NCBI GenBank assembly: GCA_950022655.1
Contig: OX465583.1
Span: 15,833,298 to 15,897,297, forward strand
DNA: 64,000 nucleotides
DNA from: Alentia gelatinosa
Lineage: Eukaryota > Annelida > Polychaeta > Phyllodocida > Polynoidae
Direction: 5' to 3'
Shown here piece by piece: positions 11,524-48,721 of this stretch (its first letter is position 1; the number at the start of each line of letters is the position of its first letter). Position numbers and translations under genes: made by a program. The notes beneath the pieces were generated by a model. That model made no database searches. It had not been told where the DNA came from and saw only the letters and a list, made by a program, of their open reading frames with translations.

Positions 11524-12407
11524 TGCATGCATAGACAATAATTTATGGTTTTGTAAACAGGCGGCCGTAAACCACGAGAGGCTGATGTGCAGTGATACAC
11601 GAGCGTCAGCGAGTGCATTACACCATCAGCATTGAGTAGTAATCAATAACTATGAGCTTTTAGAGGGAGGGATGGGATATTAGTTCACTGTGGTCCCATA
11701 CATTTTCAATATAGAAAATAAATTTCCACACGAACTGATTGATAGACAAATCAATCATAGACATATATATACTATACCAAGTGTATATAGACTGAGTGGG
11801 AAAAATACACCAGACATTTTCAATATAGAGTTGTGAGTTATTAAGGTTACATAAACAATATCAACTGGTTTCGGATACTTGTGGCCATATTCTCAGAGTC
11901 GTCATCGCATAGTAATATCCGGGTGATTTTACGTATAGAGTCAATTACTCGTACTCCCCCGGAAGTGATTTACACACTCCCTTTAGGGTTTCTATGGAGG
12001 CTATGTATTAGGTGGATAATAAAGGAACGATATGTACATATCTATGTAACGGTTGCCGTCTCTGGCCTTGTCGGTTTTCTCACCCTCGGATCAGATCGTA
12101 TCTATTCCATTGATATTATGTTGCTACCCTATGAGAACTCACATAGGTTGGTTGAGGTAAGTTTGGTATATATGCTGGATGACTATATATGCCTAATCAC
12201 ACAAAGCCAGACTGCGAAACTGAGGTAAATAATGTTTATTGTAAATACCTTTTTCTTTAACAACAGAGTTGTTGCAACAGTACCCTGACCACTTGATTTC
12301 ACCTTGAGCACTGGATCTATACTTGTTCATTTTCTGAAATAGAGGGCACACCCAATGCGCGAAAACCCCCAGTTATTTCATATATATGCCACCGCGTAAA
12401 TGCATGT
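11524..12407. other. AT-rich spacer
   Basis: No recognisable coding sequence. The plus-strand frame 11881-12228 (115 codons) has no domain I recognise and uses AT-biased codons like its surroundings. Confidence 0.4.
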
Positions 12408-12478
12408 ATAAGTTAGGTCTATACATTTAGGTAATAGATAAGCATACGAGTGAATATAGTTTGGCGAGAATACAACCA
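12408..12478 (-). repeat. Terminal direct repeat of the deleted element, outer copy
   Basis: 71 bp beginning ATAAGTTAGGTCTATACA on the plus strand. It is identical to 12757-12827 as far as I can align by eye. It corresponds to the 3'-terminal B2 copy of split direct repeats. Confidence 0.85.
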
Positions 12479-12756
12479 GACCCTATGGCCATTTATTACG
12501 TGAATACAGGATGAAGAACCCCCCAGTATTACATAAATACAGAACTGGGTAACTTAAACCTAAATTTAAAAATTAAAATTAGGTCCTGCTCATACGATTG
12601 ACTAAGGTAGAGTGAGGAGATCCCCAACCGTCGCATCAAAGGAACTATGACGTGTGCTACAATAGGCCACGCCCCCGAGTGGCTATACCATGGATACGTG
12701 CTTAGCAAATGGGGGCCTAATTATATATGTATAAGTAATGTCCATTATACATTGAT

Positions 12757-12827
12757 ATAAGTTAGGTCTATACATTTAGGTAATAGATAAGCATACGAGT
12801 GAATATAGTTTGGCGAGAATACAACCA
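12757..12827 (-). repeat. Terminal direct repeat of the deleted element, inner copy
   Basis: An identical 71-bp copy immediately downstream (in element sense) of the recombinase reading frame, corresponding to B1. Its plus-strand left edge abuts a copy of the sequence found at the element's 5' end (12738-12758 matches 14033-14053), so this is the B1-A2 junction. Confidence 0.85.
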
Positions 12828-12842
12828 AACCAAAATAATTAA

Positions 12843-13737
12843 TTAGGCGTAATTCCCTAGAAAAGAGTTTACCAACTCCGATTCTTTATCTGAAACAGAA
12901 TTATGTAAATATCTGTAAACCGCTGACGATTTCCTTAGCTCGGATTACCTCAATAGGCACACCAATTTTTTAAGAAAGGTCGCACCCCCATGCCTCAGTG
13001 AGTGTGTCCAGACCTTTCCTGTGATACCAGTCTGGAAGGCTAAGTTCTTTAGTCTGGAATTAAAATAGCCGTAAGTCATAGGTCTAGAATTAGACATAGT
13101 AATCAAGTAACAATCTGGATTACTGTAATTGATAGATTTGAACATTTCGTTGATACATAGCAGAGAACCAGGAATCGGGTGAATGTAAATATCATATGGT
13201 TGAATCCCGAATTGATCTGTCTTACTTGTACGAATGTGGATAATTATCATTTTATCCGAAATTTTTACATCACCGACCTTTAGATTGTGTGGAGAGTTTG
13301 ATACATGAGACTTTCTCAGTAATCCACGAAAACATAGCATAATTGCTAACCACAAATTGAAATCGTCATGACAAGAGACATCTGACTTTGAACGAATTTT
13401 TAACAAGTCAGTAGGTGTAAGAGGATACCTAGAATTATCCTTAGATAAATAACACCTCTGAATACCTTTCAATACCATGCGAATTTTGAAATCGGATGAA
13501 TAATCCATGTGACCCTCGATTTTTTGATACCACCAAACTGCTGATAGATAGTTGTTTATAGACGTTGGTGATAAATACTCTGACAAATATGATATATACC
13601 AACAAGCTTGATCCCTAGTACAAGGGAAAGGTGACAAATGATATTTTTCACAAAATCTTCTGTATAATCGTAACTGGTTTTCCCTTGCTTTTTTAGTAGA
13701 TTCTGAGATTGATAGTGAAAAGAATTTTTCCGATTTT
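12843..13737 (-). pseudogene. Tyrosine recombinase, frameshifted (YR retrotransposon)
   Basis: The main open frame is 13737-12945, of which the last 230 codons start at an apparent Met at 13637. Homology to the intact recombinase begins earlier, near 13712. The catalytic boxes are visible: arginine in CFRGLLRK, lysine in RTSKTD, and HSLRHGG. After LKK the frame runs into a stop at 12945. The C-terminal segment with the expected tyrosine in YLHNSV is still readable in other frames down to 12843, so two small frameshifts separate the nucleophile from the rest. In the family this enzyme integrates a circular cDNA in place of an integrase; here it should be inactive. Confidence 0.85.
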
Positions 13738-13753
13738 TATTGTAAGTCCCTGG

Positions 13754-14047
13754 TCAAGTCTGTAAACCAGAACAACACATGTTGTAATCTGAGAGAGTTT
13801 TAACGAATTTGTCATAAATGCCAGGGTAAATTAACCTAGACAATTGGTCTGCTAATATATTATTAGCACCTTTGATATGTGTGGCCCAAATTTCAATATT
13901 GAATAAAAAACAATACCAAAAAATCTCTCGCAACCATGCCATACAGGTACGATTTTTGCTTTTACCGCTATTCAGCATGAATATAACTTGCATATTATCT
14001 GTCCAGATAATCACTTTTTTGTTACGATAATTATGTCCATTATACAT
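13754..14047 (-). pseudogene. RNase H fragment fused to the element's 5' terminus
   Basis: 97 codons hold the C-terminal half of a retrotransposon RNase H: the third acidic motif WTDNMQV, then WLREIFWYCF and the terminal ILADQLSR. The first two acidic motifs and the whole reverse transcriptase are absent. The first few codons come from the terminal-repeat remnant, so the apparent start is a deletion junction. It aligns with about residues 470-555 of the Pol at 45240-47162. Confidence 0.85.
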
Positions 14048-14074
14048 TGATATCTGATGTACATTGACATATTT

Positions 14075-15859: not shown

Positions 15860-16800
15860 CGCCGCTATGCTACACGCCACGTACGCCGGTATGTGCCACA
15901 TGCGCCGGCATGCGCCGTTACGCCAGTTACTCTATGCCACATGCGCCGGTATGCGCCGTTACGCCAGTTATTCTATGCCACATGCGCCGGTATGCGCCGT
16001 TACGCCAGTTACTCTATGCCACATGCGCCGGTATGCGCCGTTACGCCAGTTACTCTATGCCACATGCGCCGGTATGCGCCGTTACGCCAGTTACTCTATG
16101 CCACATGCGCCGGTATGCGCCGTTACGCCAGTTACTCTATGCCACATGCGCCGGTATACGCCGTGACGCCAGTTATTCTATGCCACGTGCGCCGGTATGC
16201 ACCGTTACGCCAGTTACTCTATGCCACATGCGCCGGTATACGCTGTGACGCCAGTTACTCTATGCCACGTGCGCCGGTATGCGCCGTTACGCCAGTTACT
16301 CTATGCCACATGCGCCGGTATGTGCCGTTACGCCAGTTACTCTATGCCACATGCGCCGGTATGCGCCGTTACGCCAGTTACTCTATGCCACATGCGCCAG
16401 TATGCGCCGTTACGCCAGTTACTCTATGCCACATGCGCCGGTATGCGCTGTTACGCCAGTTACTCTATGCCACGTGCACCGGTATGCGCCGTTACGCCAG
16501 TCACTCTATGCCACATGTGCCGGTATGCGCCATGACGCCAGTTACTCTATGCCACATGCGCCGGTATGCGCCGTTACGCCAGTTACTCTATGCCACATGC
16601 GCCAGTATGCGCCGTTACGCCAGTTACTCTATGCCACATGCGCCGGTATGCGCTGTTACGCCAGTTACTCTATGCCACGTGCACCGGTATGCGCCGTTAC
16701 GCCAGTCACTCTATGCCACATGTGCCGGTATGCGCCATGACGCCAGTTACTCTATGCCATGTGCGCCGGTATGCGCCGGCACGTCAGTCACTGAACGCCA
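15860..16800 (+). repeat. 41-bp minisatellite, about 22 copies
   Basis: The unit starts CATGCGCCGGTATGCGCCGT and continues TACGCCAGTTACTCTATGCCA. Neighbouring copies differ by only a few bases. A five-unit block (205 bp) at 16391 is repeated at 16596 with the same private variants, showing higher-order duplication. Because 41 is not a multiple of 3, each unit shifts frame, and since no frame contains a stop, long cysteine/arginine-rich frames open in all three plus frames (for example 15857-16903, 348 codons). I do not regard these as genes. Confidence 0.95.
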
Positions 16801-17765
16801 CATGCGCCGGCATGCGCTGTCATGTCAGTTATTGTTCACCACATGCACCGTTACACCAGTTACTGAAGTCCCTGTTTGCCTGTATGCACCATTTTGTCAG
16901 TAAGTGTATAAACATGTCATGTTAAGTGTCATTAAGGCCCGGCGTCCACCTACTACGATATGGCTCCGATATGGTCTACGATGCACCTCCCGATACAAAA
17001 ACAAAATCGGGTCGGAATGTCACCTAATATCGGGGCAGTTGACCACGTTTCTGCGATTAGACACCGATAAAAACCGAATACAATGCGTGGTGGATTGGTT
17101 TGTCTAGACATATGTCTACGATTTTTCACCTTCCCGATATGGTACCGATTTTTACATTTTGTATCTGTGCCATATCGGGAGGTCTACGATTCTATCGTAG
17201 TAGGTGGACGCCGGCCCTATAACAGTTGCTGTATGCCACATGCGCTGGTATGCACCCTGTGGGCCGGCATGTATTGTTATGTCAGTTGCTGTATGCCACA
17301 TACACTAGTATGTGTCATTACATCAGTTATTGTGTGCCTCATTTGTTTATATGTGCAGTTACTGCAGTTAGTGTACACAACGTGAGCCGGAATACACCGT
17401 TGCATCAGTTACTATAGGCTATGTCATCCTCTTTACCTTGTAACATCAGATATTGTGCGTCATGTGTGCCAGAATGCCCTGGAATATCAGTTATTGTATG
17501 CCACATGCAGTAGTATGTGCTGTTCCAATAAGCTCCTGTATGCCACATGTGCCAGTAGGTGCTATTCACTCAGTTCCTGTAAGCTATGTATGCCGGTATG
17601 TGTCTTGTACTTGTATGCGTCACTGTCAGCTATTGTATGCTGTGTATGACTGTATGCTGTGTATACCAGTATGTGACATTACATTAGTATGACACATCTG
17701 TCGGTATGCACCATGATGACAGTAACTCTAGACCTTATTATCTCGTATGCGCCGTTATGTCAGCC
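16801..17765 (+). repeat. Decayed flank of the 41-bp minisatellite
   Basis: Recognisable but progressively diverged relatives of the unit (TGTATGCCACATGCGCTGG, ATGTCAGTTGCTGTATGCC, and so on) continue to about 17765, interrupted by a MITE at 16936-17217. Divergence rises away from the homogeneous core, the usual picture when unequal exchange homogenises the centre and leaves the edge to drift. Confidence 0.7.
16936..17217. mobile_element. MITE family 2, copy a (inside minisatellite flank)
   Basis: Terminal inverted repeats of about 26 bp (GGCCCGGCGTCCACCTAC ... GTAGGTGGACGCCGGCC), 282 bp in all. The right end lacks one G of the consensus. Other copies are at 56773, 61486 and 62304. Flanking sequence is TAA/TA, less clean than the TTA seen around copies b and c. 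Non-coding; frames across it are shadows. Confidence 0.85.
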
Positions 17766-35956: not shown

Positions 35957-36650
35957 ATTCTAGATGCCCAGAGTATGTCACTCAAGTAAGTGTCGGCCAC
36001 AAAATACCAGACAAGAGGAAGCCAGACTACAACCATCGGGGAAAATGTGGGCTAACCATATAACCCTGTTAATATTATTAGTGAAGCACCCATCACCATA
36101 TGAACAATTTCTTGGTTACATTTGCCAGGGAAGTGTCAAACCCGCTACTTACCAATAGTTTATGGGCAAACTAGAGCAGCTGTCATCACATCTACACTCC
36201 AAATACTTCAAATTCTTTGAGAAAAGGAAGGGCAGCAAGACTTTTCTAATCAGTCATATCCTGGTTCATGAGGTAAAAATGAGAGGAAATTGGTCATCAG
36301 ACTGCATTTACTGTTACCTTGAGAAATCATGGATGCCAAGGTGTCTATGGACAAAAAGGCGGTTAGGGCATTATTATTTCAATTGTCAATGATTGCTAGT
36401 TTGGGTGCAGTATATGAATATATATTGGCAGGAAATTCGGCTTCCGGTTATCCAGGTAAAAATGCCCAACAGCCCTAGCGCGTTGGCTTATCGCCTCAGG
36501 TCAACCCTAGCGGCTCCAAGATGAACCTTTAAATCTTTCCTTTCTCTTTTGTCTCTTTCTTAGTTGTTGGATATATTATTGTCAGTGTTACAACAATTTC
36601 ATACAATATCCTTTTTCTACCAAACCTCACTTGGGTTGTTGTCTGTTGGG
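35957..36650. other. Spacer
   Basis: The frames at 35964-36158 and 36162-36392 have no recognisable domain. Nothing else supported. Confidence 0.4.

Positions 36651-43762: not shown

Positions 43763-43767
<5 letters not shown>

Positions 43768-43809
<42 letters not shown>
43768..43809. repeat. (TA)n microsatellite at the retrotransposon's 3' boundary
   Basis: About 20 TA units end exactly where the retrotransposon begins (43810). A matching short (AT)n lies beyond its other end (48336-48347), so the element sits within one original AT microsatellite. Confidence 0.9.
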
Positions 43810-43812
<3 letters not shown>

Positions 43813-43909
43813 ATTCGTCCTATGAGAACTAGAAATATAGTAATATATATTAATTAATAAATAACAACAATAACAGCGGATTTGGCAGGAATAAATAATT
43901 AAATACGGC
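43810..43909 (-). repeat. Split direct repeat B2 (3' terminus)
   Basis: 100 bp starting GATATTCGTCCTATGAGAAC on the plus strand and ending AAATACGGC. Identical to 44188-44287. Its outer edge abuts the (TA)n tract. Confidence 0.95.
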
Positions 43910-43969
43910 TTTATTGATACATTGGGAACAACCCAGCCTAGACATCTAGATAACAAGTAAACTAAGGTA

Positions 43970-44187
43970 AGTTTTTTAACACAGCTGATCTACGCGAGAT
44001 CAAAGGCGGATTAACCGTTTATATTAATAGAAGACTACGTCACGCATCCAACGACCGCGCGGTTGCTAAGACACGTGACGAAACAAAAGGCGTGACGTGG
44101 ATTAACATAGCTACCGTTACTTGGTGAGTAGCGTAGTGTTGTCTTGCGTCCTCACATATATTAATATATTGACATATATAGACATAT
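43970..44187 (-). repeat. Split direct repeat A2 (internal)
   Basis: 218 bp identical to 48118-48335. It contains a CACGTG E-box (44072-44077) next to GGTTGCTAAG and several CGTGACG words. In this group the left repeat usually carries the promoter, so these could be promoter sites. It abuts B1 with no intervening base. Confidence 0.95.
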
Positions 44188-44287
44188 GATATTCGTCCTA
44201 TGAGAACTAGAAATATAGTAATATATATTAATTAATAAATAACAACAATAACAGCGGATTTGGCAGGAATAAATAATTAAATACGGC
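44188..44287 (-). repeat. Split direct repeat B1 (internal)
   Basis: 100-bp copy of the 3' terminus lying 23 bp after the recombinase stop. Its junction with A2 (GACATATGATATTCG) is exactly what joining the two element ends would give, as expected if it templates circle formation. Confidence 0.95.
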
Positions 44288-44310
44288 CAAAAACCCTGCC
44301 AAAGACACAA

Positions 44311-45210
44311 TCACATACTTTTAAGAACTTTTAGGTCCGATTGAACCTGGGATTCCACCGATTGATGGAGATACGTGAACACTGCATTGGACGTCCAGTT
44401 ACCCCGTTTCATAATAGTACTCGTAGGGATACCCACCGACTCTAGAAAAGACGCCCCACCATGCCTTAGTGAATGAGAACTAACTGAGACTGGGGAAATA
44501 CCTATCAAACCACAAATGTTTTTTAATCTGTGGTTGAAAAAGGGATAGGGCAAAACAACCAGACCTGAAGAGGACCTAAACGAGAATAAAAAATCCTCAG
44601 AAGAAAGATTATTGGACGAAATAACTTTCTTAGCCATTGAAAAAACACAGAAAGGAGAGCTTTCCAAGATACCTAGATAAATCGAATGAGGTTTCTGACC
44701 AAGCTGGTCAGTTTTGGAAGAACGAACCCTGATTTCCAAGTGATCACCCGAAAAAACAAAATCTTTGACCCTTAGGGTATGTTCAGAAAGAGTAAAGTGG
44801 CACTTACGAAGGAGTGCCCGAAAACCCGTGATAATAGCCAACCAAAAAACCAAATCCGAACCATCTTGTAAGGACAATTTAGAAAAAATTCGAAGAAGGT
44901 CCCACTGAGAAAACGAATGCCTAGGAGAAACCTGACAACACTTGGACTTGGCTATACCCTTCAGAATAAGCTTCAATCTATAATCTGACGAGAAATCCTG
45001 AAACCCGCGGAGTTTTTGATAAAACCAAACCCCAGACAAATAGTTTTTCACCGAACTAGCAGAAAGTGTAGAAGACAAATGAACAGAGTAAATACCAGCT
45101 TGATAAGCCGTACAAGGAAACGGAACTAGTTCAAAACTTGAACAAAAAGCCAGATACTTGTTGAGTTGATTAACCCTAGACTTAGAAGTATTAGTCGAAA
45201 TACCTGACAT
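44311..45210 (-). CDS. Tyrosine recombinase of the YR retrotransposon
   Basis: 299 residues. It should recombine circular element cDNA into the genome, replacing the DDE integrase of LTR retrotransposons. An N-terminal SAM-like core-binding region (about 5-100) carries NQLNKYLAFC and NYLSGVWFYQ. The catalytic domain shows the box I arginine in GFRALLRK (R131), lysine in SSKTDQ (K166), HSLRH (H246, R249) and the nucleophile in FTYLHQ (Y280) after GNW. ATG is at 45210-45208, 29 nt after the Pol stop in a different frame. That frame is open back across the Pol stop, so reinitiation or a -1 shift could both supply the protein. No disabling change seen. Related to the broken copy at 12843-13737. 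Confidence 0.93.
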   Translation of the reverse strand: MSGISTNTSKSRVNQLNKYLAFCSSFELVPFPCTAYQAGIYSVHLSSTLSASSVKNYLSGVWFYQKLRGFQDFSSDYRLKLILKGIAKSKCCQVSPRHSFSQWDLLRIFSKLSLQDGSDLVFWLAIITGFRALLRKCHFTLSEHTLRVKDFVFSGDHLEIRVRSSKTDQLGQKPHSIYLGILESSPFCVFSMAKKVISSNNLSSEDFLFSFRSSSGLVVLPYPFFNHRLKNICGLIGISPVSVSSHSLRHGGASFLESVGIPTSTIMKRGNWTSNAVFTYLHQSVESQVQSDLKVLKSM

Positions 45211-45239
45211 CAGAAAAACCTCACTCTGGAACTGAAGGT

Positions 45240-47162
45240 CTAATAATCCAGAACCTGAAGATCAACAGAATAAAACATACCATTATCCACTAAAACTTTA
45301 ATACATTTACCGAAATAACCATTATAAGTGATACGAGACAAATAATCTGCCAAGATATTGTCTTCCGACCTAATATAGGAGGCAACTAGCTGAATATTAA
45401 AAACAAAACAAAACCAGAAAATCTCTCTCAGCCAACCCATGCACACTGAATTGTGACTCCTACCTGAATTAATCATGGACATAACCTGGGTGTTATCGGT
45501 GATTAAATGAACCCTCCTATTGGAATAAGCCTGTCCCCAACGTTTCAAACCGACCACAATGGGCCAAAGTTCCAGAACATTAATATTTAAATCTCCAACT
45601 TCCTCAGAGGGACCCTCAACGATATGATCCGAAAGACAATCATTAGAAAAAGAATTGTCCCAGGTACCAAAAACAAAATCCTCCCCAGCCCAAACACCAA
45701 AACCTTTTCCTGAAGAATCTGATACCATAGGAACTCCTGAACAATCAGTTTGTATTATAGCTCTACCATTAAAAATTTCTGAGAATTTTCTCCACCATTC
45801 GAGGTCCTTCCTGGCCTCTTCATCTATTTTAACCCTAACCCCCCTACGGGTTCTGGCACTCAAATCAAAAAATCTCCTGCTGAAAGTCCTTCCACCTCTG
45901 ACTATTTGAGAGCAAAAAGAGATTATTCCTCCCAGGATTTCGAAATCCTTTTTTGTTCCTGAACCTTTTTCCAATGCAGTATTAACGAAATTATTGAGTT
46001 TATCAATTTTACTCTGAGGTAAAGTCAAGCTCATATCGTTACTATCAATAGTGATGCCTAAAAAGATAGTTTTAGTTGATGGAAATGTTAATTTTTCCCT
46101 TGAGACTTCAAAACCAATTGTCTCCACCATCGTAATAAATTTATCACGATACTCTAGGCATTCATCATAACTTGAGCCTATTATGAGGAAATCATCCAAA
46201 TAGTTAATCACTAAAGGGATGTTTTCTTGATGTGCACAGTCTACGATAAAATTTGATAATTTAGTAAAGATACTTGGAGCACAACGGAGGCCAAAACAAA
46301 GCCTATTATCACAAAATAGCTCAGGACCCTCGCCTAAATCCCATCTTAGGCCTTGATATTTAGTGTGTTCTGAAAATACATTAACGGACCTATAAGCTGA
46401 TTTTAGATCCACCACTACTGAATAATCTCCTATATTCAGACATTCTGCCGCAGAATAAACCGAGTTATAGGTTATATCGGTGAAAGTGCTACTCATATTG
46501 TCATTAATACTGCCGCTTATAGGCATAGAACAATCTGTTATAGGCCGCAATTTACCATTAGATTTAACTACGGCACCAAGAGCATGTATACATTGTGGTT
46601 TGACACTGACTTTAGAAATTCTATCGTTTTCAATATCGTCAATAACAATATCAGACATCTGATCACTAAACTTTTCGTCAAGAATCGAATTATAATTATC
46701 GCAGTCATACGATACAGTACAATCGGAATTAACAATCTTAAAACCCCAATTGATACCATCCCAAACAAAATTCTTTTCATCCTCTGACAATTTTGAATTT
46801 TGATTAGAATCAAAAATATACTTATAGGCCCTACACGGCTTCAACTGAGCCTTTTTTCCGCCTATAGTGTGAGAACAACCGCAACAGCCTAAACGACAGG
46901 CCGAAACATCCGTAACGAAATCTTTCTCCACTACTGATGGGTAAAAAGATTCTGCTTCAATATTTAATACAGAATTCGTTAAAACAACATTGTCATTAAC
47001 GAATAACGAATCTACAGAGGGTGCTACAGAGCAAGAAGTAACAAAACCGTTACTGGCAGTAACGTCATCATTTTGGCTATTTTTAGATTCAGCGCATTCC
47101 TCGTTTGATACATTGTCACAATAGCGACCTGATTTGAAATAGCATTGCTCCGCACCAATATA
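45240..47162 (-). CDS. Pol: reverse transcriptase and RNase H
   Basis: 641 codons from just after the Gag UGA; the last 563 follow a GTG at 46931 with no in-frame ATG nearby, so translation by readthrough from Gag is likely. Numbering from 46931: RT motif A VDLKSAYR (D175), the conserved GLRCAPS turn (215-221), motif C YLDD (244-247), and a GGIISFCSQIVRGGRTF thumb region (334-350). RNase H has TDCSG (396), NVLELWP (E454), ITDNTQV (479-480) and ILADYLSR (D529). The upstream 77 codons and the cysteine-rich start (CRLGCCGC) have no clear counterpart. It copies element RNA into cDNA in cytoplasm or nucleus. No frameshift or missing catalytic residue. Confidence 0.93.
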   Translation of the reverse strand, partial: YIGAEQCYFKSGRYCDNVSNEECAESKNSQNDDVTASNGFVTSCSVAPSVDSLFVNDNVVLTNSVLNIEAESFYPSVVEKDFVTDVSACRLGCCGCSHTIGGKKAQLKPCRAYKYIFDSNQNSKLSEDEKNFVWDGINWGFKIVNSDCTVSYDCDNYNSILDEKFSDQMSDIVIDDIENDRISKVSVKPQCIHALGAVVKSNGKLRPITDCSMPISGSINDNMSSTFTDITYNSVYSAAECLNIGDYSVVVDLKSAYRSVNVFSEHTKYQGLRWDLGEGPELFCDNRLCFGLRCAPSIFTKLSNFIVDCAHQENIPLVINYLDDFLIIGSSYDECLEYRDKFITMVETIGFEVSREKLTFPSTKTIFLGITIDSNDMSLTLPQSKIDKLNNFVNTALEKGSGTKKDFEILGGIISFCSQIVRGGRTFSRRFFDLSARTRRGVRVKIDEEARKDLEWWRKFSEIFNGRAIIQTDCSGVPMVSDSSGKGFGVWAGEDFVFGTWDNSFSNDCLSDHIVEGPSEEVGDLNINVLELWPIVVGLKRWGQAYSNRRVHLITDNTQVMSMINSGRSHNSVCMGWLREIFWFCFVFNIQLVASYIRSEDNILADYLSRITYNGYFGKCIKVLVDNGMFYSVDLQVLDY

Positions 47163-48053
47163 TCATTTCTTAACGAATTGGCCACTGCTGGATTTACAAT
47201 CATAGGCCCCGTGGCTTTTGCCGTTACATTCGCTACACACATGCCTATATTTACAGTTGCTAAACTTGCAAGCGTTCTCAGCCCTATTGAAAAGATTACA
47301 ATAGCCAATTTTATCGGGTTTCTTCAAATTCTTTGACTTAGAAATAGCCGCATTGACTGTTCCTTCGTAAGATAAATAGCGAACAATATCTGACGGATCA
47401 ATGCCATCAAAAGCACTAATGCCTATTTTTTCCGCTCTCTCCTTAACAGAGTTATCATATTTGAGAAGTGCTTCGCTCGTAAAAACTTTCGTTTCCGCTT
47501 TTTCCGAAAGCAAAATTAAATGTTCAACGAGAGGTTCAACCTCTTCCCCTTTTTGAATTAAATCTTTCAAAAGTTTAAGATTGATAACATTCAATTTTTC
47601 AATGGTGACAAGTTTCTCATTTTCATTCAGATAATTTTTCGAAAGATAAATACCGGATTTTGACTTGTCTTTCTCCTTATCGTTGGTCTTGTTTTCATTG
47701 TCAATAGTAGTCTTGGATGCAGGCAACCCACAGTCTTTAACACAGTCACTCTGAATCCCACCGACCGCACCTTGACTTGGATTTGATACAGCTGCTGGAA
47801 CCGACACAGATTCTTTCTTTTCCTGGAGAAGACCAATAACGGTGAATAGAGATGCCTCTAAACGATTCATCCGATCCATTATCTGCTCCCCCGATCCTGA
47901 AGACACGGTTGATCTGGTCGCTCTTTCTTCCACCGGGTTGTCAGTTGATTCTTCTTGTTGATCGTAGTCAGAATCCACCAAATCAGATCTAAAAACCTCC
48001 GAATTAAATTCATCGACCGATGTGGCTGGCGCCAACTTCCTTCTCCTCCCCAT
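47163..48053 (-). CDS. Gag-like nucleocapsid protein
   Basis: 296 residues from an ATG 65 nt after A1. The N-terminus is basic (MGRRRKL). Residues about 55-85 (MDRMNRLEASLFTVIGLLQE) could form a coiled coil. The C-terminus has two zinc-binding patterns: a CCCH type (C252-X9-C262-X4-C267-X3-H271) and a classic retroviral-type knuckle C273-X2-C276-X4-H281-X4-C286. These fit RNA binding and packaging. The frame ends in UGA at 47165-47163 and continues, without another stop, straight into Pol in the same frame. The assignment as Gag rests on position and zinc fingers. Confidence 0.85.
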   Translation of the reverse strand: MGRRRKLAPATSVDEFNSEVFRSDLVDSDYDQQEESTDNPVEERATRSTVSSGSGEQIMDRMNRLEASLFTVIGLLQEKKESVSVPAAVSNPSQGAVGGIQSDCVKDCGLPASKTTIDNENKTNDKEKDKSKSGIYLSKNYLNENEKLVTIEKLNVINLKLLKDLIQKGEEVEPLVEHLILLSEKAETKVFTSEALLKYDNSVKERAEKIGISAFDGIDPSDIVRYLSYEGTVNAAISKSKNLKKPDKIGYCNLFNRAENACKFSNCKYRHVCSECNGKSHGAYDCKSSSGQFVKK

Positions 48054-48117
48054 ATTTGAGTCGGATCTCCAATCATCAAGTGAGAAAACGAAGTTAAACT
48101 ATAACGAAACAGCTGCG

Positions 48118-48335
48118 AGTTTTTTAACACAGCTGATCTACGCGAGATCAAAGGCGGATTAACCGTTTATATTAATAGAAGACTACGTCACGCATCCAAC
48201 GACCGCGCGGTTGCTAAGACACGTGACGAAACAAAAGGCGTGACGTGGATTAACATAGCTACCGTTACTTGGTGAGTAGCGTAGTGTTGTCTTGCGTCCT
48301 CACATATATTAATATATTGACATATATAGACATAT
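48118..48335 (-). repeat. Split direct repeat A1 (5' terminus)
   Basis: 218 bp identical to 43970-44187. Its outer end, GACATAT, runs into ATATATAT of the genomic flank, so the exact boundary is ambiguous by about four bases. Confidence 0.95.
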
Positions 48336-48347
48336 ATATATATATAT

Positions 48348-48655
48348 CACTCTATAACCTGTTATATGTATATAAATTGTAGAGACTCAGGATACGTTTC
48401 TATCGTATCGAGGTGGTTACCCGGTTGCGCTTCACCCTGGTAACCGTTACATCACGTTGTCATCACTAGCTTGGGTTACGTCACGTTCTAACAGCTAACG
48501 GATACTTGTATCGTTTTCTCAGCAGGGAAAACACGTATATTTTAGTCTTACCGTTTAACTATGTCTGAATAAACCCGGTTTTTATGTGATTACCTCCAAA
48601 TACCTCGTTCTTATTTATTCGCTACTGTTTGTTAATTATTTATCCAGCTCGTATC
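48348..48655. other. Spacer with a GGTTACC/GGTAACC inverted pair
   Basis: GGTTACCCGG near 48413 and CCTGGTAACC near 48447 form a hairpin whose loop includes TTGCGCTTCA, similar in style to the foldback loops near 5 kb. Otherwise nothing. Confidence 0.35.

Positions 48656-48657
<2 letters not shown>

Positions 48658-48721
<64 letters not shown>
48658..48721. repeat. (TA)n microsatellite
   Basis: About 31 uninterrupted TA units. Confidence 0.95.

What the first reader, a model, noticed from the sequence alone, without database searches (positions are those of the whole stretch)
43810..48335. Apparently intact, recently inserted tyrosine-recombinase retrotransposon with perfect split direct repeats
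Both repeat pairs (218 bp and 100 bp) look identical, and RT, RNase H and YR catalytic residues are all present. The A1-ORFs-B1-A2-B2 order is directly visible. Ngaro elements usually carry a hydrolase frame and some relatives a methyltransferase; neither is seen here, so it may be a distinct Ngaro/PAT lineage. It could be an active copy.
Basis: partly seen in the sequence, partly recalled or inferred. Interest (0 to 1): 0.85.

Follow-up and report, generated by a model that had tools for sequence, protein, structure and literature searches.

The report
Young Ngaro retrotransposon with Gag-UGA-Pol
This is a recently inserted, apparently intact jumping element of the known Ngaro type, sitting in an AT repeat; what is unusual is that its polymerase seems to be made only if ribosomes read through one conserved UGA stop codon, as some retroviruses do.

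Summary
On the minus strand, 43810-48335 is a 4526-bp tyrosine-recombinase (YR) retrotransposon: A1, gag, RT-RNase H, YR, B1, A2, B2, with A1=A2 (218/218) and B1=B2 (100/100). The host genome (1.23 Gb, unnamed) holds near-identical copies (8 and 9 mismatches); 16 of 20 copies checked keep all three frames. All 24 copies with both ends lie between short AT runs.

Lack of hydrolase and methyltransferase is ordinary for Ngaro. Its RT-RH is only about 25% identical to four methyltransferase-bearing ORFs of the same genome.

The new point is translation. Gag and RT-RH share one frame, split by a single UGA, and RT-RH has no AUG before codon 169, inside the folded RT. The UGA is in 27 of 27 family copies; in 21 of 22 loci of sister families (RT down to about 55% identity) gag's last codons, UGA and RT-RH stand in one frame. 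Programmed UGA readthrough is the best reading, unproven without RNA or protein data. A near-neutral linker, no stem behind the UGA, and AUGs in the linker of five sister loci count against it.

The parts
48118..48335 (-). A1 repeat (5' end of the element, presumed promoter region)
   Evidence: 218/218 identical to A2; promoter role inferred
47166..48053 (-). gag, from first ATG to the codon before the stop (296 codons), ending in a CX2CX4HX4C zinc knuckle
   Evidence: open frame; pN/pS 0.15 over 20 copies; knuckle CSECNGKSHGAYDC
47163..47165 (-). single UGA between gag and RT-RH, both in one frame; proposed readthrough site
   Evidence: in 27 of 27 family copies; junction kept in 21 of 22 sister-family loci
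45240..47162 (-). RT-RNase H frame, 640 codons plus stop; first Met at codon 169
   Evidence: no Met in the first 168 codons in 20 of 20 copies checked
46890..47162 (-). linker behind the UGA (codons 1 to about 91): near neutral at first, disordered in the model up to residue 84, no in-frame stop
44311..45261 (-). YR frame (-1 relative to RT-RH, overlapping its end); first ATG 45210-45208
   Evidence: pN/pS 0.075
44188..44287 (-). B1 repeat
   Evidence: 100/100 identical to B2
43970..44187 (-). A2 repeat
   Evidence: 218/218 identical to A1
43910..43969 (-). 60-bp spacer between A2 and B2
43810..43909 (-). B2 repeat (3' end of the element)
   Evidence: 100/100 identical to B1
43766..43809 (.). 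(AT)n target flank, left
48336..48347 (.). (AT)n target flank, right

Best explanation
A Ngaro-like YR retrotransposon that inserted recently. A transcript from A1 makes Gag; a minority of ribosomes read through the UGA and make a Gag-RT-RNase H fusion, which sets the Gag to Pol ratio and carries the polymerase to the RNA with the zinc-knuckle Gag. YR comes from its own -1 frame, most simply by reinitiation at the ATG about 30 nt past the RT-RH stop. The split repeats let reverse transcription close a circle with B joined to A, and YR recombines the ATAT at that junction with ATAT in a genomic (AT)n array, without a target duplication. Shown: anatomy, copy family, target context, conservation of the UGA and of the shared frame, constraint on RT-RH codons upstream of any AUG. 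Inferred: readthrough, YR reinitiation, the circle, the crossover point, present activity.
For: Perfect split repeats. 26 further copies, two with 8 and 9 mismatches; 16 of 20 with all three frames open. AT runs on both sides in 24 of 24 copies with both ends. UGA in 27 of 27 copies; no Met in the first 168 RT-RH codons in 20 of 20 copies checked, while codons 61-168 are constrained (pN/pS 0.106), carry a Cys block kept in most homologues and fold with RT. Sister families: gag and RT-RH in one frame over the stretch compared in 19 of 22 loci, always TGA in AAY-AAR-TGA-A, and the junction itself is also there in two of the other three. Linkers of 93, 88, 75 and 72 codons differ by whole codons and have no in-frame stop.
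Against: No RNA or protein data. The first 60 codons behind the UGA show no constraint within the family (pN/pS 1.07) and 0.75-1.14 between families. No stem stands out directly behind the UGA, and UGA-A or UGA-U is not the motif that one study found most readthrough-promoting (UGACANNNA, PMC10954755 passages). Five sister loci have a Met in the linker (L044 and L045 codon 6, L050 codon 25, L035 and L054 codon 78). In 102 of 120 listed homologues the predicted protein starts at or before query residue 49, so many relatives may start RT-RH at an AUG. L039, L042 and L056 do not keep gag in frame.
Confidence: 0.7

Rival explanations
1. The same Ngaro-like element, but RT-RH is translated on its own: non-AUG or internal initiation in the linker, or a spliced or shorter transcript that skips the UGA.
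For: The linker just behind the UGA is near neutral; no recoding stem was found; most listed homologues have a Met near the start of the frame and five sister loci have one in the linker.
Against: It does not explain why gag and RT-RH keep one frame across linkers of 72 to 93 codons, why the frame stays free of stops (0.1-1% by shuffling), or why the stop is TGA in every junction seen.
Confidence: 0.22
2. A PAT-like element (relative of DIRS) that lost its methyltransferase, as proposed for one Caenorhabditis briggsae lineage in PMC4157794.
For: PAT elements also have split direct repeats, and the echinoderm form keeps the internal repeats behind YR (PMC4157794 section 7).
Against: RT-RH is only about 25% identical to four methyltransferase-bearing ORFs of the same genome, which form one side of a branch (SH-aLRT 100) against 33 rows; no Dam match in its proteins, nor Dam in the Pfam column of the 120 listed homologues.
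Confidence: 0.06
3. The UGA is a chance null mutation of this copy or of a dead family.
For: One stop separates two otherwise open frames.
Against: The UGA is in 27 of 27 copies and in sister families with RT 55-62% identical, with purifying selection in all three genes.
Confidence: 0.02

Closest known systems
Ngaro-like retrotransposons (DIRS order), e.g. the three-ORF elements of amphioxus and Cafeteria
   Same: gag, RT-RNase H and YR in this order; split direct repeats A1-ORFs-B1-A2-B2; no methyltransferase; no hydrolase in those two hosts (passages)
   Different: gag and RT-RH in one frame with one conserved UGA and no AUG at the RT-RH start; strong (AT)n context. Neither was mentioned in the passages seen
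PAT-like retrotransposons
   Same: Split direct repeats; zinc finger in Gag in the Pat1 group (PMC4157794 section 7)
   Different: No methyltransferase; RT-RH far from methyltransferase-bearing ORFs of the same genome
Gag-stop-Pol of gammaretroviruses such as murine leukaemia virus (recalled)
   Same: Gag ending in a CCHC knuckle, one in-frame stop, Pol in the same frame
   Different: UGA here, UAG there (recalled); no clear RNA structure behind the stop; YR instead of a DDE integrase; no protease was recognised

Membership tests
Ngaro-like retrotransposon | Split direct repeats A1-ORFs-B1-A2-B2, internal repeats behind YR | tested here: met
Ngaro-like retrotransposon | RT, RNase H and tyrosine recombinase, no DDE integrase | tested here: met
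   no integrase core domain listed
Ngaro-like retrotransposon | No methyltransferase domain | tested here: met
   no Dam match in the three proteins at E 1
Ngaro-like retrotransposon | RT-RH groups with named Ngaro references | not tested
   no named reference sequence was available; homologues are unnamed
PAT-like or DIRS-like retrotransposon | Methyltransferase domain behind RNase H | tested here: not met
   frames of the element
PAT-like or DIRS-like retrotransposon | RT-RH close to methyltransferase-bearing elements | tested here: not met
   25-26% identity to four such ORFs, separate with SH-aLRT 100; whether those four are DIRS or PAT was not determined
DIRS1-like retrotransposon | Inverted terminal repeats and internal complementary region | tested here: not met
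   direct repeats only; inverted pairs listed are AT-rich
Gag-Pol by stop-codon readthrough | One stop between gag and pol in the same frame, conserved | tested here: met
   27 of 27 copies; 21 of 22 sister-family junctions
Gag-Pol by stop-codon readthrough | Pol has no start codon of its own | tested here: inconclusive
   met in the window and 20 of 20 copies and in L036, L037, L038; Met in the linker of L035, L044, L045, L050, L054
Gag-Pol by stop-codon readthrough | Stimulating context or RNA structure behind the stop | tested here: inconclusive
   shared AAY-AAR-UGA-A in sister families; no stem directly behind
Gag-Pol by stop-codon readthrough | Measured fusion protein | not testable with these tools
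   needs RNA or protein data

The most novel reading that the evidence does not exclude
A clade of Ngaro retrotransposons sets its Gag to Gag-Pol ratio by programmed UGA readthrough at a conserved Gag end (mostly Asn-Lys-UGA-A), a retrovirus-like solution in a tyrosine-recombinase retroelement, and enters (AT)n arrays through an ATAT identity between its circle junction and the target.
Probability: 0.6. Interest if true: 0.6.

Novelty: new variant of a known kind. Interest (0 to 1): 0.5.

Why it matters
How YR retrotransposons balance Gag and polymerase was not addressed in the papers I could see. One genome here holds young, near-identical copies and several diverged sister families with the same single UGA, so readthrough can be tested with a short reporter. 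The family also gives a clear target context, (AT)n with an ATAT identity, for the YR integration model. The element type itself is ordinary.

Tried and rejected
Rejected: a PAT or DIRS placement. A recoding stem directly behind the UGA (at 150 nt the mean z of seven sequences is -1.77, most of it from one). A coupled stop-start (AATGA): the ATG is in another frame and is missing where the codon before is AAG. A hidden gene over the linker: another frame is open over element 1013-1312 but shows no consistent constraint. Relatives in phage records and viral contigs: none found (one search used only six short peptide patterns). Gag homologues: none at E 1e-3, though one listed RT protein, P0119, carries gag fused to RT without a stop. 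Rfam and tRNA: none. In one search the row of L046 is a wrong site; it was not among the seven folded.

Not done: number of solo AB repeats and a search with the right flank in the host genome (tool busy); empty (AT)n sites; a tree with named references; any RNA evidence; the host's identity.

Literature: eight searches of the open PMC library; no listed title or abstract start reports readthrough in Ngaro or DIRS elements. Of the 17 papers with 'Ngaro' and 'stop codon' I saw passages of two, PMC8547959 and PMC2632668, whose stop-codon passages concern other genes; the rest only as a listing. The founding paper (Goodwin and Poulter 2004) is not held, so novelty is not proven.

Full report
Observation. 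The repeats are as described: 218/218 and 100/100 identical. All three genes read on the minus strand, so in coding direction the element runs from 48335 to 43810: A1, gag, RT-RNase H, YR, B1, A2, a 60-bp spacer, B2. Four bases (ATAT) at the B edge cannot be assigned to element or target.

Proteins. RVT_1 matches at 6e-12; Phage_integrase at 3.2e-05, just below its cut-off. Profiles of homologues find Ty3 and MLV RT (3e-13, 1e-10) and Cre and XerD (2e-18, 4e-6). The AlphaFold2 model of RT-RH has mean pLDDT 83 and its best PDB matches are foamy virus, CaMV, MLV and Ty3 enzymes. YR R148, K183, H263, R266, W289 and Y297 stand in 62, 63, 61, 59, 60 and 56 of 63 rows. The gag frame ends in a CX2CX4HX4C knuckle, found also in L035, L036, L037 and L038.

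Family and age. The host genome (unnamed, 1.23 Gb, 101 contigs) gave 31 matched stretches, that is the window copy and 26 others, all of which I fetched. L009 and L010 differ from the window copy at 8 and 9 of 4526 positions. Of 20 copies examined, 16 keep gag, RT-RH and YR open; broken are RT-RH in L017, gag and YR in L020, YR in L022 and gag in L024. A1 equals A2 in 10 of 18 copies where both could be compared, B1 equals B2 in 11 of 19. By protein, 34 of 70 listed matches cover residues 1 to 639 or 640 at 90% or more, 27 of them without a stop; only 69 of 11748 first-look candidates were scored, so counts are lower bounds. pN/pS of 20 copies against the window copy is 0.15 for gag, 0.064 for RT-RH from the first Met and 0.075 for YR. 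These are marks of a recently mobile family; movement today is not shown.

Target. Of 27 copies, window included, L015, L022 and L031 have a truncated 5' end (the script gives them 0 on that side because it met the internal A2). Of the other 24, 22 have four or more alternating AT bases on each side; L011 and L014 have 3 on one side. About 0.4% of window positions outside the element have four or more on both sides. The B1/A2 junction reads AATATC then ATATGTC on the coding strand, so ATAT is shared with the target. Sister families L036 and L037 have nearly the same A end and B end; L036 lacks an AT run on its 5' side. A circle recombining at ATAT with (AT)n explains the ends without target duplication; this is inference from the published split-repeat model.

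Gag-UGA-RT. Gag and RT-RH lie in one frame with one TGA between them (47163-47165). RT-RH has no Met before codon 169, nor in 20 of 20 further copies. Codons 61-168 are constrained (pN/pS 0.106), carry a Cys block (C89 in 101 of 104, C110 in 108 of 109 rows with a residue there) and belong to the folded RT (pLDDT above 79 from about residue 91); so ribosomes must enter this frame upstream of any AUG. The TGA is in 27 of 27 copies.

Sister families. I took 22 loci, L035-L056. In 19 gag and RT-RH share the frame and the first stop in it is TGA in the context AAY-AAR-TGA-A. In L042 and L056 the gag frame is shifted upstream, but the last gag codons, TGA and RT-RH still stand in one frame; L039 lacks the stretch. 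L035 and L055 have further stops downstream. L036, L037 and L038 have no Met until the conserved RT Met (codons 164, 151, 148). A Met occurs in the linker of L044 and L045 (codon 6), L050 (25), L035 and L054 (78); for the other stretches only about 110 codons behind the stop were held. Linkers of the window, L036, L037 and L038 are 93, 88, 75 and 72 codons, with no stop in frame and 3-14 stops in each other frame; shuffled linkers are stop-free in 0.1-1.0% of trials.

Against. The first 60 codons behind the TGA are near neutral. No stem stands out directly behind it. 102 of 120 listed homologues are predicted to start at or before query residue 49, so the AUG-less start is not general in Ngaro, and P0119 has gag and RT fused without a stop. 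I put readthrough at about 0.7 and separate initiation or splicing at about 0.2.

Classification. Structure and lack of methyltransferase fit Ngaro as defined in PMC4157794 (sections 7 and 17 read). The Dam search gave 61 matches in the host genome; four such ORFs, L057-L060, are 25-26% identical to the window RT-RH (25-28% to the sister families) and separate with SH-aLRT 100 from the window element, three sister loci and 29 homologues; the window element groups with L036 and L037 (99) and then L038 (98). Named Ngaro or PAT references were not available. Absence of hydrolase is not special: amphioxus and Cafeteria Ngaro elements are described with three ORFs (passages), and the hydrolase is described for amphibians (passages). 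The listed frames of L036, L037 and L038 show no further long frame between YR and the 3' end.

Noticed in passing
window 12407-14053 (minus strand): A decayed second Ngaro-type element: YR about 41% identical to the first, RNase H tail, B repeats 76 bp (98.7% identical), and only a stub of about 21 nt of A1; gag and most of RT are gone.
   Followed up: partly
window 48348-48660: A 313-bp stretch between two (AT)n arrays right beside the element, weakly similar to its A-spacer-B repeat in the opposite orientation (7 of 500 shuffles score as high); perhaps a solo repeat of a related family.
   Followed up: partly
L036:43-82 and L037:417-460 against window 48335-48300: The outer bases of the A repeat are nearly the same in families whose RT-RH is only about 60% identical, as expected of a recombinase binding site.
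   Followed up: partly
host genome G000, e.g. L057-L060: Many methyltransferase-bearing RT-RNase H ORFs of about 700 codons (61 Dam matches), so DIRS/PAT-type elements live beside the Ngaro families.
   Followed up: partly
window 15894-16831: Minisatellite of 41 bp, 22.9 copies, open in several frames.
   Followed up: no
window 36225-36329 (plus strand): Short weak match to the YR C-terminus (36 residues, E 0.005), possibly a further relic.
   Followed up: no
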